A program made the position numbers and the translations under genes. A stretch of 64,000 nucleotides of DNA from Nostocales cyanobacterium HT-58-2 (GTDB lineage: Bacteria > Cyanobacteriota > Cyanobacteriia > Cyanobacteriales > Nostocaceae). The notes beneath the pieces were generated by a model. The model searched no databases, was not told the origin of the DNA, and worked only from the letters and a program-made list of their open reading frames with translations. The DNA lies in assembly GCA_002163975.1 (NCBI GenBank), contig CP019636.1, forward strand, positions 7,381,501 through 7,445,500, written 5' to 3'. This document shows, in pieces, positions 1,611 to 34,802 of this stretch (the stretch's first letter is position 1; each line of letters starts with the position of its first letter).

Positions 1611-2576
1611 TTAAAGCGTTCCTAACGTAGAAGATGTCGCTCCTTGGGTATCAACACAAAGCGATTGCACCTCTGCCTGTATTCCCTCTTCCTGCCAAGC
1701 CGCTGTCATCGATGCCGCTACACTTTGAGAGTGAGCCTTATCAGTCAAAGCCAATAGCGTTGGTCCGGCACCACTAATGACCATACCATAAGCGCCAGCA
1801 GCAACAGCCGCCGAATGTACCGCATCATAACCTCGAATCAATCCTTTGCGATAAGGCTGATGTAATCTATCTTGCAAAGCAGCCTTTAACCAATCACTCC
1901 TGCCAGTTTCCAAACCGCGCAACAATAACCCCAGATGTGCCGCATTAAATATGGCATCTGCACGGCTCACTTCAGTTGGCAGAACTCCTCGCGCCTCCTT
2001 CGTTGAAAGCTCAAAATCTGGAATTGCCACAACTGGCACAACCTCCTCACACCAAGGAATTTCACAAATCTCCCACTCTCTGTGCGGTTCAATTTCCAAC
2101 CCCGTCGCCGCCAAACGACATCCTCCCAACAAAGCCGGCACCACATTATCAGGATGTCCTTCTAGAGCGATCGCCAACTCCATCAACTGCGACTGGCTGA
2201 GTGGCTCCCCAGCCAGTAAATTAGCGCCAACCAAACCCCCAACTATTGCTGTCGCCGAACTCCCTAAACCCCTTGCCAGAGGCACACCAAGATGAATATC
2301 AAATTGCACAAGTGGCGGCGTCTGATCTATGTGTTGATAAAACTTCACAAACGCTTGATAGAGCAAATTACTTTCATCAGTGACAACTCGTTCAGCTTCT
2401 GCACCCGTGACAGTCATTATCACTTTGCCAGTCTCTTTGGAAGGGGAAGATGTATCAAGGAGAGTGAACTTGAACTGGTTGTACAGTGTTAAAGCCGCAC
2501 CAATACAATCAAAACCTGGTCCTAAATTGGCAGTGGTTGCTGGAACAGTGACAGATACACAAGAAATAACAGACAT
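1611..2576 (-). CDS. thrB: Homoserine kinase
   Basis: Phosphorylates homoserine to O-phosphohomoserine in cytoplasmic threonine synthesis. The 321-residue product is a GHMP kinase: the N-terminus VTVPATTANLGPGFDCIGAA is diagnostic for homoserine kinases, the phosphate-binding loop PLARGLGSSATAIVGG sits near residue 100, and the C-terminal GHMP motif reads VISGAGPTLLAL. The ATG at 2576 is preferred because homologues begin MSV; an in-frame ATG two codons upstream (2582) is possible. Neither has a strong Shine-Dalgarno sequence. An insertion sequence ends about 25-30 bp upstream, so the gene may have lost its original promoter and could depend on a promoter in or beyond the element. Confidence 0.95.
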   Translation of the reverse strand: MSVISCVSVTVPATTANLGPGFDCIGAALTLYNQFKFTLLDTSSPSKETGKVIMTVTGAEAERVVTDESNLLYQAFVKFYQHIDQTPPLVQFDIHLGVPLARGLGSSATAIVGGLVGANLLAGEPLSQSQLMELAIALEGHPDNVVPALLGGCRLAATGLEIEPHREWEICEIPWCEEVVPVVAIPDFELSTKEARGVLPTEVSRADAIFNAAHLGLLLRGLETGRSDWLKAALQDRLHQPYRKGLIRGYDAVHSAAVAAGAYGMVISGAGPTLLALTDKAHSQSVAASMTAAWQEEGIQAEVQSLCVDTQGATSSTLGTL

Positions 2577-2713
2577 CAGCATCTAAAAAGTATTGTAGTG
2601 ACTGTTGACACTTCCACGGCTAGAAGCACGTGGGATTCTTGGCTCAATGAATCAACTTGTCTAAATGAGTTTCCCCAATTAAACAGTGGTTGGTTTCTCC
2701 ACGCCACATGCTT

Positions 2714-2815
2714 CTCCTTACGGAGACGCTGCGCGAACAAGTCGGGGAACCCTTTCGGCAATCGCCTACGGAGGAAAACCCTCCTGCAGCGTTGCCTCAC
2801 CAACGCAGTGGCTCC
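2714..2815. repeat. GC-rich dispersed repeat inserted in tnpB, flanked by CTCC
   Basis: The segment is bounded by CTCC at 2714-2717 and 2812-2815. Removing 98 bp, one CTCC included, rejoins the upstream tnpB frame (...HNAWE) to the continuation KHVAWRNQPLFNWGNSF. It holds self-complementary GC-rich modules such as CCTACGGAGG and GCGCAGCGTCTCC that recur elsewhere in the window. Confidence 0.7.
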
Positions 2816-3713
2816 CAAGCGTTATGAGTTTCCGTGTGCCCCACGGTACTTAATTGATATCCGGCTTGTTTGAGTGCTTTGTCTAAAATATTGATGGCTG
2901 CATTGTGGTCACGATCTAGTACACACCCACATTTACAAATGTGAGTACGCATAGAAAGTGATTTTTTTACAACTTCCCCACACTCAGAGCAATTTTGTGA
3001 AGTGTATTGAGGAGGAACGGAAACAACTATCCGCCCATACACTTTGCCAAAATATTCTAACCACTGAGTGAATTGTGACCAACCAGCATCACTAATTGAC
3101 TTAGCAAGCCTACGGTTTTTAACCATGTTCCTTATTTGAAGTTTCTCAAAAGCCACGAAATCATTAGATTTCACTACGCACAACGCCTGTTTGACGGCGT
3201 GGTCTTTACGCTGGCGAGAAACTTTTAAATGCTTGCGTCCTAACTTCTTAACTGCGCGTTTACGATTGTTAGAACCTTTCTTCTTACGACTAACCCGCTT
3301 TTGTAGTCGTTTCAAAGCTTTTTCTGACTTTCTCAAATGACGAGGATTGTCAACTTTTAAACCGTTGGAATCAGTGTAGAAAGCTGATAGCCCCACATCT
3401 AACTCAATGGTTTTTCCAGCAGGTTGAATATCTACATTTCTGTCTGCTTGTATGCAGAATTGAACGTAGCACCCGTCACTACGACGAACAATCCTAACTC
3501 GTTTGATTTGGTCTATTTGATAATAATGCAAGTCGTATGTACCAACCAATTTCAGTTTTCAAATACCACACTTGTCAATAAAATTAATGTATTTACGGTC
3601 ATCAGATAACTTCCATCCTGTTTGCTTGTACTCTACAGAACGGTTGTTTTTCTGAAACTGTGGGAAGCCTTTCTTACCCGGTTTCCCCGACTTGCAATTA
3701 TCGTAGAATCTTT

Positions 3714-3729
3714 GAATTGAGGAATTGAG
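3714..3729. repeat. 8-bp tandem duplication causing the tnpB frameshift
   Basis: GAATTGAG occurs twice head to tail. With one copy deleted, the minus-strand frame is continuous from the TnpB N-terminus into the conserved FYDNCKSGKPGKKGFPQF stretch. Confidence 0.85.
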
Positions 3730-4091
3730 AAAGATGCTCTCTCTGTTGCAGCTTGTCTAGCCTGTGAATTTAGTTTATTGGCAAACTCAAATTCTTTAGC
3801 CAAAACAGCACTTAACTTACTCAGTTCAGATAACTTAACACCACGATTGTCCATCCAAAACCGTATAGATTTATTCCGTACAAACTGAAATGTACGGATA
3901 GCTTCATCAACTTTTTGATATTGCTCGACTCTCCCTTTGGCTTTGAATTCGTAAACAATCATGGTGCATTTCTCATTATCGACCTATTACTATCATAAAT
4001 GTGTTTACAACCACGATGTTTCCCTAAATACACATTTTCTAAAAAAACTTTAGATCTTTGGACGGCAACTAAAGTTGCTACGCATTCATGA

Positions 4092-4262
4092 GTCAGCACT
4101 GAAGGAGGGTTTCCAACGCCAGATGCTCCACTTGGGGAAACACGCCAGGTGCTACAACGCGGGGAACCCGCGCAACGCACTGGCTCCCCAAGACCGCACT
4201 GGCTCCTCCGTAGGTGTCTGGCGTCCCCACGGCTAAAAGCCGATGGGCTTTCTGCTCTCAAC
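4092..4262. repeat. GC-rich dispersed repeat cluster in the left end of the IS
   Basis: Shows the modules GGAGGGTTTCCAACGCCAG, CGCACTGGCTCC (two versions) and CTCCGTAGGTGTCTGGCGTC. Related modules occur at 2714-2815, 34660-34802 and 38757-38970. The inner side of this stretch carries the IS left-end hairpin. Confidence 0.6.
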
Positions 4263-4273
4263 ACTGTAAGTGC

Positions 4274-5251
4274 CTAACTACAAAAATTTAATTTATTATG
4301 CGAACAATCGAACAAATGTAAACCAAACTGCTGGGAAAGTTCCTCACAAACCTTCACCCCGCGAACACTATTACTGCGGAAATCTAGGAGTGGTGAAAAC
4401 ACGCCAATTCCCATTAAATTTGGAACAACGGCGATAATACCACCAGACACACCACTTTTTGCAGGAATACCAACCTTATATGCCCATTCTCCTGCAAAAT
4501 TGTACATTCCGCAGGTATACATAACACTAAGAATATCTTTGATGTAACGGCTATCCACTGCTGTTTTTTTTGTAAAGGGATTGATACCCTTGTTAGCTAG
4601 GGTCGCTGCCATGACTGCCAAATCGTAACAATTCACCATAACAGAACACTGCTGAAAATACAGGTCTAGCGATTCATCAAGATGTTGGTCAATCATGCCA
4701 AAGTTGAGCATCAAGTGTGCCATTGCTCGGTTGCGATGTCCTGTGATACGCTCTGAGGTAAATACGGAGATATCAACGAACATATTGTGACCAGTATATC
4801 GCTGAAACATATCCAGCATCCGGTTAAGTCGTTCAGTGGCACTTGAGCCTTTAATCAAGCTGGTCGTTGCTATAGCCCCCGCATTAACCATTGGATTGTA
4901 AGGTCGCTTTGATTTCTCATCAAGGATGATGGCGTTGAATGCATCCCCCGTTGGTTCTACGCCCACTTTTGTTAACAGGTAATCGCGTCCATGATCCTCA
5001 AGCGCCAACCCGTAGACAAAGACTTTAGAAATCGATTGAATCGTAAAGAGTTGGTTGTAATCACCAACTTTGTAAATGTCACCATTGACGGTAGCAATGC
5101 AAATACTGAAGAGGTCTGGATTAACTTTTGCAAGTTCTGGAATGTAGTTTGCTACAGATCCATCTCGCAGTGACTTGTACTTTGAATGTAAGTCCTCCAG
5201 AAAAGATTGAAATGATGATGCAGCTGTTTGTAAATCTTGCTGTTTTGTCAT
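4274..5251 (-). CDS. glsA: Glutaminase A
   Basis: Hydrolyses glutamine to glutamate and ammonia. The 325-residue product has the serine-dependent beta-lactamase-like fold of the glutaminase family. The SxxK motif is Ser73-Ile-Ser-Lys76, followed by the family blocks [31 protein letters not shown] and, near the C-terminus, [16 protein letters not shown] with [10 protein letters not shown]. Length is near the usual 305-330. It begins with an ATG ([10 protein letters not shown]). The gene stands alone: the IS lies just downstream and a long AT-rich gap upstream. Whether it has a NtcA-type nitrogen-control site was not resolved by eye. Confidence 0.95.
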
Positions 5252-34659: not shown

Positions 34660-34802
34660 GAGGTGAGACAGCGCTGCAGGAAGGTTTCCAACGCCAGATA
34701 CCTACGGAGGGAAACTCTCCTTCAGTACTGGCTCCTCCGTAGGCGACTGCGAACCCGAAGGGCTTCCTCCGTTCCCTGCAGGGGTTGCCGGAGGCATCAG
34801 AA
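34660..34802. repeat. GC-rich dispersed repeat cluster
   Basis: Modules GGTGAGACAGCGCTGCAGGA, GGTTTCCAACGCCAGATACC, ACTGGCTCCTCCGTAGGCGA and CTCCGTTCCCTGCAGGGG form overlapping palindromes. Closely similar modules occur at 4092-4262 and 38757-38970. The rest of the 34537-34906 gap is AT-rich. Confidence 0.7.

What the first reader, a model, noticed from the sequence alone, without database searches (positions are those of the whole stretch)
2714..2815. GC-rich dispersed repeat behaves like a mobile unit: inserted in tnpB with a 4-bp flanking repeat
The segment is flanked by CTCC on both sides, and removing 98 bp rejoins two tnpB frames. This gives a pre-insertion state, length and probable target duplication for a repeat class that is otherwise only seen between genes.
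Basis: partly seen in the sequence, partly recalled or inferred. Interest (0 to 1): 0.7.

Follow-up and report, generated by a model that had tools for sequence, protein, structure and literature searches.

The report
Mobile hairpin repeat interrupting tnpB

Summary
Three sister IS copies in the same genome (92-97% identical) read GGTTTCTCC|CCAAGCG; the window carries a net 114 bp there (2701-2814), not 98 bp.

The insert belongs to a GC-rich hairpin family: GA + covarying stem + GT, usually 44-45 bp, here enlarged by a nested second unit. Units go in flush, or within about one base: all ten units that scored as lying in tandem arrays (of 143 examined) restore the array best when exactly GAG...GGCGT is removed. 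An exact 4-bp flanking repeat occurs in 0 of 87 and 0 of 30 units. AGRG is over-represented just upstream. The same IS holds two more stacked insertions; another tnpB holds one that keeps its frame open.

A strict pattern hits 106 of 145 genomes of the taxonomic family; its reversed control hits none. The units work like REP/IS200-type single-strand elements, but fail the GTAG tag (0 of 93), the SDR5 target (0 of 130) and linkage to the Y1 genes tested. Mobility is well supported; the mobilising enzyme is unknown.

The parts
2644..3962 (-). IS605-type tnpB (no tnpA beside it), a pseudogene: frame broken between about 3549 and 3633, and C-terminus replaced by the insert
   Evidence: ORFs 3633-3962 and 2797-3549; Pfam OrfB_IS605 and Cas12f1-like_TNB in the second piece, no match for the first; 401-codon stop-free frames in L032-L034; the end 2644 was read by eye
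2701..2814 (-). 114-bp insert, a GA-hairpin-GT unit (GAGCCACTGC...GCATGTGGCGT); net insertion against three empty paralogs
2756..2798 (-). inner unit (GAGGCAACGC...GCGATTGCCG) nested in the outer unit; the outer unit occurs without it as 69-bp copies in L216 and L219 (compared by eye)
4090..4224 (+). hairpin unit in the left-end region of the same IS, itself interrupted; IS copy L032 lacks it (GCATTCAT then CCCAC)
4115..4205 (-). 91-bp net insertion into the core of that left-end unit; uninterrupted in L118 (the same IS copy as L033), L104 (the same IS copy as L034) and L175; related fillings at the same site in L132 (same letters) and L186 (72 bp)
4143..4186 (-). 44-bp unit GAGCCAGTGCGTTGCGCGGGTTCCCCGCGTTGTAGCACCTGGCG inside the 91-bp insert
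34692..34734 (-). a further 43-bp strict-ended unit in the window, lying next to other repeat modules (by eye)

Best explanation
The segment is one copy of a non-autonomous mobile hairpin repeat of filamentous cyanobacteria. A unit is GA + an imperfect hairpin with a fixed foot and a variable head + GT, about 44-45 bp; units nest inside each other, and this one (114 bp) is an outer unit holding an inner one. Shown: it is absent from sister IS copies and its net insertion is 114 bp; the window unit and the array units insert without a 4-bp duplication; the stem is kept by two-sided base changes; AGRG is over-represented just upstream. Inferred: an enzyme that recognises the hairpin on single-stranded DNA cuts it out or copies it and joins it flush behind a short target word, as Y1/HUH transposases of the IS200/IS605 and REP type do, acting in trans. 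Which enzyme does this is not known. I put 0.9 on mobile and (nearly) flush, and about 0.45 on the HUH-type step.
For: Empty sites for this insertion: three own-genome paralogs read exactly as the flush prediction. Other unit insertions with an empty paralog and a 1-bp BLAST overlap: 4115-4205 of this IS, and L182 against L136. The left-end unit is absent from L032. Tandem-array test: all 8 units, of 113 with non-redundant flanks, that reach the array threshold, and both such units of 30 in G081, restore the period best when GAG...GGCGT exactly is removed; none best fits a 4-bp duplication. 4-bp flank repeats: 0 of 87 and 0 of 30. Hairpin covariation on 28 distinct units chosen by me: foot helix 99.6% of cells paired, two-sided changes in 10 of 14 pairs of the whole structure, 64 two-sided against 5 one-sided cells, 0 of 500 shuffles as high for the covariation score and for cells paired. 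DNA folding of five strands or units: z -2.8 to -4.4. AGRG directly upstream in 22 of 93 unique units, against 0.016 per position elsewhere in the same flanks. Pattern in 106 of 145 genomes, reversed control 0 in all.
Against: No mobilising gene was found. No strict unit lies in the 20-kb stretches around 5 of the 8 Y1 genes of this genome (L103, L109, L110, L111, L161; the other 3 were not held), though a looser core match lies in L161. Unit counts do not track RAYT counts (Spearman 0.12, p 0.14), 8 of 44 genomes with 10 or more units have no RAYT at E<=1e-20, and 9 genomes with 3 or more RAYTs have no unit. Those 8 all have some Y1 match, in G060 (22 units) only a weak 44-position fragment. 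The window's own insertion site is TTGG, not AGRG, and 71 of 93 units lack AGRG. Many copies sit in repeated host sequences, so the target count is not fully independent. Strict flushness does not hold everywhere: in CCGCCAAGAC|CGCC contexts (for example L238, L270, L272) removal of GAG...GGCGT leaves one base too many by eye, and 6 of 93 units continue with neither T nor AACC. For the class with an AACCC..GGGT tail the overlap with the target is up to 3 bp by eye (5 by BLAST, L184 against L221), so a very short duplication is not excluded there. One covariation measure, further pair types, was reached by 56 of 500 shuffles, and the shuffles ignore relatedness. In G081 the same host repeat carries units with different heads, which speaks for exchange by recombination as well as for new insertion.
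Confidence: 0.6

Rival explanations
1. A classical MITE: moved by a DDE transposase with terminal inverted repeats and a 4-bp target duplication.
For: Hairpin ends can be read as short inverted repeats; CTCC lies at both true edges (2697-2700 and 2812-2815).
Against: The empty allele allows at most 1 bp of overlap; 0 of 87 and 0 of 30 units have an exact 4-bp flank repeat; none of the 10 units scored in arrays best fits a 4-bp duplication.
Confidence: 0.04
2. A GTAG-type REP/REPIN mobilised by the genome's own RAYT genes.
For: Single imperfect hairpin, flush insertion, high copy number, and RAYTs present in the genome (L100 and L102 over the NCBIfam cut-off, L099 below it). Presence of units and of RAYTs is associated across 145 genomes (odds ratio 3.1, p 0.006, not corrected for descent).
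Against: GTAG or GTGG directly at the foot in 0 of 93 units; the RAYT in L102 is flanked by a different REP, GTAGGATGCGTTAGCG (read by eye); no strict unit in the 20-kb stretches around the RAYT genes held; copy numbers unrelated, and 8 of 44 unit-rich genomes lack a RAYT at E<=1e-20.
Confidence: 0.2
3. No transposition: units spread by template switching or gene conversion between hairpins during replication, which would also restore stems and exchange heads.
For: Nested and mosaic copies, junctions inside shared cores (L105 against window, BLAST overlap 6), identical host contexts with different heads in G081, few one-sided stem changes (5 against 64 cells).
Against: Flush arrival at sites without obvious homology to the unit: tnpB in the window and heptamer arrays (by eye); constant outer ends.
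Confidence: 0.25
4. The insert is ancestral and the empty paralogs lost it by deletion.
For: Two filled copies exist (window, and L105 at 1.626 Mb).
Against: 11 of 11 other loci aligned to the same base, five in this genome and six in other genomes, have the same short spacing; the three close empty copies have an unbroken TnpB end.
Confidence: 0.02

Closest known systems
Small dispersed repeats (SDR) of Nostoc punctiforme and relatives (Elhai et al. 2008, Genome Res 18:1484; paper not held, known here only through citations in other papers)
   Same: By its title, very small mobile repeated elements of cyanobacterial genomes; SDR5 is described as inserting precisely (passage in PMC4390886)
   Different: SDR5 goes between the 3rd and 4th base of HIP1, GCG|ATCGC; here 0 of 130 units lie there. 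Whether another SDR class of that paper is this family could not be checked
GTAG-tagged REPs / REPINs with RAYT (PMC3733652, PMC3116915, PMC8266576, PMC6006769; passages seen)
   Same: Single imperfect hairpin, many copies, dimers; a short word 5' of the hairpin foot matters
   Different: No GT[AG]G directly at the foot (0 of 93), over-represented word AGRG instead, no RAYT gene nearby in the stretches held
IS200/IS605 elements and their derivatives
   Same: Insertion without duplication behind a short target word, with hairpin recognition (partly from passages of PMC6006769, partly recalled)
   Different: One hairpin only instead of left and right end hairpins; no linked tnpA found
MITEs of DDE transposons
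   Same: Short, non-autonomous, inserted in genes and IS elements
   Different: No 4-bp target duplication; covarying foot instead of conserved inverted repeats

Membership tests
GTAG REP / REPIN | imperfect hairpin kept by selection | tested here: met
GTAG REP / REPIN | GT[AG]G tetranucleotide at the 5' foot | tested here: not met
   GTAG or GTGG at -4..-1: 0 of 93 unique units; at -5..-2: GTAG 0, GTGG 1; at -6..-3: GTAG 4, GTGG 2
GTAG REP / REPIN | RAYT gene flanked by the repeat | tested here: not met
   no strict unit in the 20-kb stretches around 5 of 8 Y1 genes of this genome, 4 of them RAYT-like; flanks of L102 carry another REP
GTAG REP / REPIN | RAYT in every genome that has the repeat | tested here: inconclusive
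   83 of 106 unit-bearing genomes have one at E<=1e-20; 23 do not
SDR (SDR5) | insertion at GCG|ATCGC of HIP1 | tested here: not met
   0 of 130
SDR (other classes) | sequence identity with a published SDR | not tested
   paper not held
DDE-type MITE | constant-length target duplication | tested here: not met
   tested for 4 bp; at most 1 bp at the window site
IS200/IS605-type (Y1) mobile DNA | flush insertion 3' of a fixed short word | tested here: inconclusive
   flush at the window site and in arrays, off by one base elsewhere; word AGRG in 22 of 93 only, G at -1 in 51 of 77 class-T units
IS200/IS605-type (Y1) mobile DNA | cleavage of the single strand by a Y1 transposase | not testable with these tools
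   needs biochemistry

The most novel reading that the evidence does not exclude
A class of one-hairpin mobile units, spread through a whole cyanobacterial family, whose foot is recognised by structure (sequence free to covary), whose head can be swapped, and which land flush behind AGRG. They are moved by an enzyme, or by a replication process, other than the known GTAG/RAYT pairing.
Probability: 0.35. Interest if true: 0.6.

Novelty: new variant of a known kind. Interest (0 to 1): 0.42.

Why it matters
It gives a well-defined unit, its ends, empty sites and a candidate target word for GC-rich repeats found in 106 of 145 genomes searched of one cyanobacterial family. Stacked insertions in one IS (left-end unit, unit inside it, unit in tnpB) show repeated arrivals. 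A tnpB (L184) that keeps its frame across a 57-bp unit shows that the units can add a peptide segment to a protein. With the ends defined, a mobilising enzyme can be sought.

Tried and rejected
4-bp duplication: rejected. RAYT as the obvious mobiliser: not supported but not excluded. First census with loose ends (509 raw, 460 innermost, against 228, 266, 228 in shuffles) was too permissive and was replaced by the strict one; one unit (2756-2798) is still taken from it. Generic structural scan GA-stem-GT (22 copies against 3, 5, 4, 2 in shuffles) added the covarying foot GGCAG; its three other stems (4 copies) look like chance or coding sequence. Rfam: two matches in 2400-4500, both far below their gathering scores. 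Plasmid search with the IS: no match. Literature searches. A search for the end sequences as text gave 247 papers; none of the 15 listed titles is about cyanobacteria, and the other 232 were not seen. Papers seen as passages only: PMC3116915, PMC3733652, PMC8266576, PMC6006769, PMC4390886, PMC2884548; all others as listings.

Rows dropped: of the events (59 raw pairs) those in other repeats or gene families were not used. Unit-like events L143/L168, L105/window, L116, L118, L120, L202, L214 and L219 have BLAST overlaps or gaps from -15 to +6 that cannot be placed, because the ends lie in shared repeats. L218/L185 and L122/L212 have 1-bp overlaps, but with longer mixed inserts or another module; they were not counted as units. 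L122 against L130 and L203, next to a GTAG-REP, has a 0-1 bp gap and is only suggestive. Of the 33 other tnpB loci, L073 and L080 start inside tnpB, so they say nothing about the site.

Full report
What was claimed.

What is there. The window lies in an unnamed 7.9-Mb genome, a filamentous cyanobacterium by its relatives' repeats (inference). tnpB is on the minus strand, in two open pieces (3633-3962 and 2797-3549), with OrfB_IS605 and Cas12f1-like_TNB domains in the second. The same genome has three close paralogs (97, 97 and 92% identical over 401 bases), each with a 401-codon stop-free frame. All three read GGTTTCTCC|CCAAGCG at the place of interest. In the window GGTTTCTCC is followed by 114 extra bases (2701-2814). 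BLAST edges overlap by a single base. The spacing from the IS-end motif to the tnpB match is 73 in 11 of 11 other loci aligned to the same base, and 187 in the window. The unit motif was seen there in none of 33 other tnpB loci, from this and 20 other genomes; in two of them (L073, L080) the locus starts inside tnpB, so they say nothing. A second, remnant copy of the IS end at 1.626 Mb (L105) carries the same insert at the same site, with a further repeat unit inside it.

The family. The 114-bp insert has the ends GAGCCAC... and ...GTGGCGT. Strict ends occur 86 times in the 2.46 Mb that I held (120 stretches plus the window; not a random sample, many stretches were picked because or 17 had hits there), against 15, 8, 12, 11 and 12 in shuffles. 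A pattern with exact ends is found in 106 of 145 genomes of the taxonomic family, 0 to 66 copies each, 20 in this one; the reversed pattern is found in none. Named carriers of one 44-bp form are Brasilonema, Tolypothrix campylonemoides, Scytonema, Iningainema, Rhizonema and a Chroococcidiopsidaceae MAG (26 stretches).

Structure. Units fold as GA-hairpin-GT (z -3.8, -3.0, -2.8, -4.4, -3.9 for five foldings, the second and third being the two strands of the window insert). On 29 units (28 distinct, chosen by me to include foot variants) the foot helix is paired in 99.6% of cells and the apical helix in 88.1%. 64 cells have changes on both sides and 5 on one side. 0 of 500 shuffles reach the covariation score or the percentage paired; 56 of 500 reach the number of further pair types. 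Sliding the partners by 1-3 columns breaks it. The variants GCCAG/CTGGC, GGCAG/CTGCC, GGCAA/TTGCC and GGACAC/GTGTCC show that the fold rather than the letters is kept. The scarcity of one-sided steps suggests selection or correction on DNA rather than RNA; this is inference.

Insertion rule. If the unit is taken as GAG...GGCGT, the window site is flush. So is the restoration of tandem arrays: all 8 units that reach the array threshold among 113, and both among 30 in G081. Exact 4-bp flank repeats: 0 of 87 and 0 of 30. The 3' join varies by about one base (GGCGT or GGCGTN): the 4115-4205 insertion ends GGCGTT, and sites such as CCGCCAAGAC|CGCC have one base too many if only GGCGT is removed (by eye). 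Units with an AACCC... tail (10 of 93 unique) have GT upstream in 9 of 10; 6 of 93 fit neither class. For the 77 units followed by T the upstream word has A 42, G 56, R 67 and G 51 of 77 at -4, -3, -2 and -1. AGRG stands directly upstream in 22 of 93 units, against 0.016 per position elsewhere in those flanks. This count is weakened by shared host repeats: in G081, 8 of 30 units sit in one host repeat (..AAGGG|GTGGGG..) with different heads, so either that site is hit repeatedly or heads are exchanged.

Stacking. The IS in the window carries three layers: a unit in the left-end region (4090-4224) that IS copy L032 lacks; a 91-bp insertion into that unit (4115-4205), absent from the IS copies L033 and L034; and the tnpB insert. 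Inside the tnpB insert an inner 43-bp unit (2756-2798) sits in an outer unit that is known alone as 69-bp copies in L216 and L219 (compared by eye). Another tnpB (L184) carries a 57-bp unit that adds 19 residues (SQRVGRVPRLEATGEPVRV) between OrfB_IS605 and TNB and keeps 433 codons open.

Mechanism. Flush joining, a short upstream word and recognition of a hairpin are what Y1/HUH transposases of the IS200/IS605 and TnpA-REP type do (passages in PMC6006769 and PMC8266576; flush joining is recalled). But the GT[AG]G tag is absent (0 of 93), no strict unit lies in the 20-kb stretches around 5 of 8 Y1 genes, and copy number does not follow RAYT number at E<=1e-20, although presence is associated (odds ratio 3.1, p 0.006). 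The eight unit-rich genomes without RAYT all have some Y1 match, in one only a fragment. Template switching between hairpins could explain nesting, head exchange and stem correction, but less well the arrival in tnpB and in heptamer arrays.

Verdict. A real and well-resolved case of a mobile hairpin repeat. It is close to the SDR and REP classes, without meeting the tested defining features of SDR5 or of GTAG REPs. Whether it equals another published SDR class could not be checked.

Noticed in passing
L184:3664-4962: A tnpB whose frame stays open across a 57-bp hairpin unit, adding 19 residues between its two domains; the paralog L221 lacks it.
   Followed up: partly
L268-L297 (genome G081): The same host repeat context carries hairpin units with the same ends but different heads, as if heads were exchanged like cassettes.
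   Followed up: no
L147:8556-8657 against L146; L108:12760-12847 against L130: A second short repeat family (about 100 bp, CTAAGTTGCATTCAAAAACCTCACCCC..) that interrupts other sequence; edges overlap by 3 bp (TCA) in the first pair, so it may be a true MITE with duplication.
   Followed up: no
L111 (RAYT of L102): A RAYT gene flanked by GTAGGATGCGTTAGCG repeats, looking like a GTAG REP; in L122 and L130 a hairpin unit sits inside what looks like a related repeat.
   Followed up: partly
own-genome sample L103-L222: Repeats that look like CRISPR repeats dominate the 20-mer counts (for example 77 and 37 copies of two types).
   Followed up: no
window 3549-3633: tnpB is broken a second time here, independent of the insert; the three close paralogs are unbroken.
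   Followed up: partly
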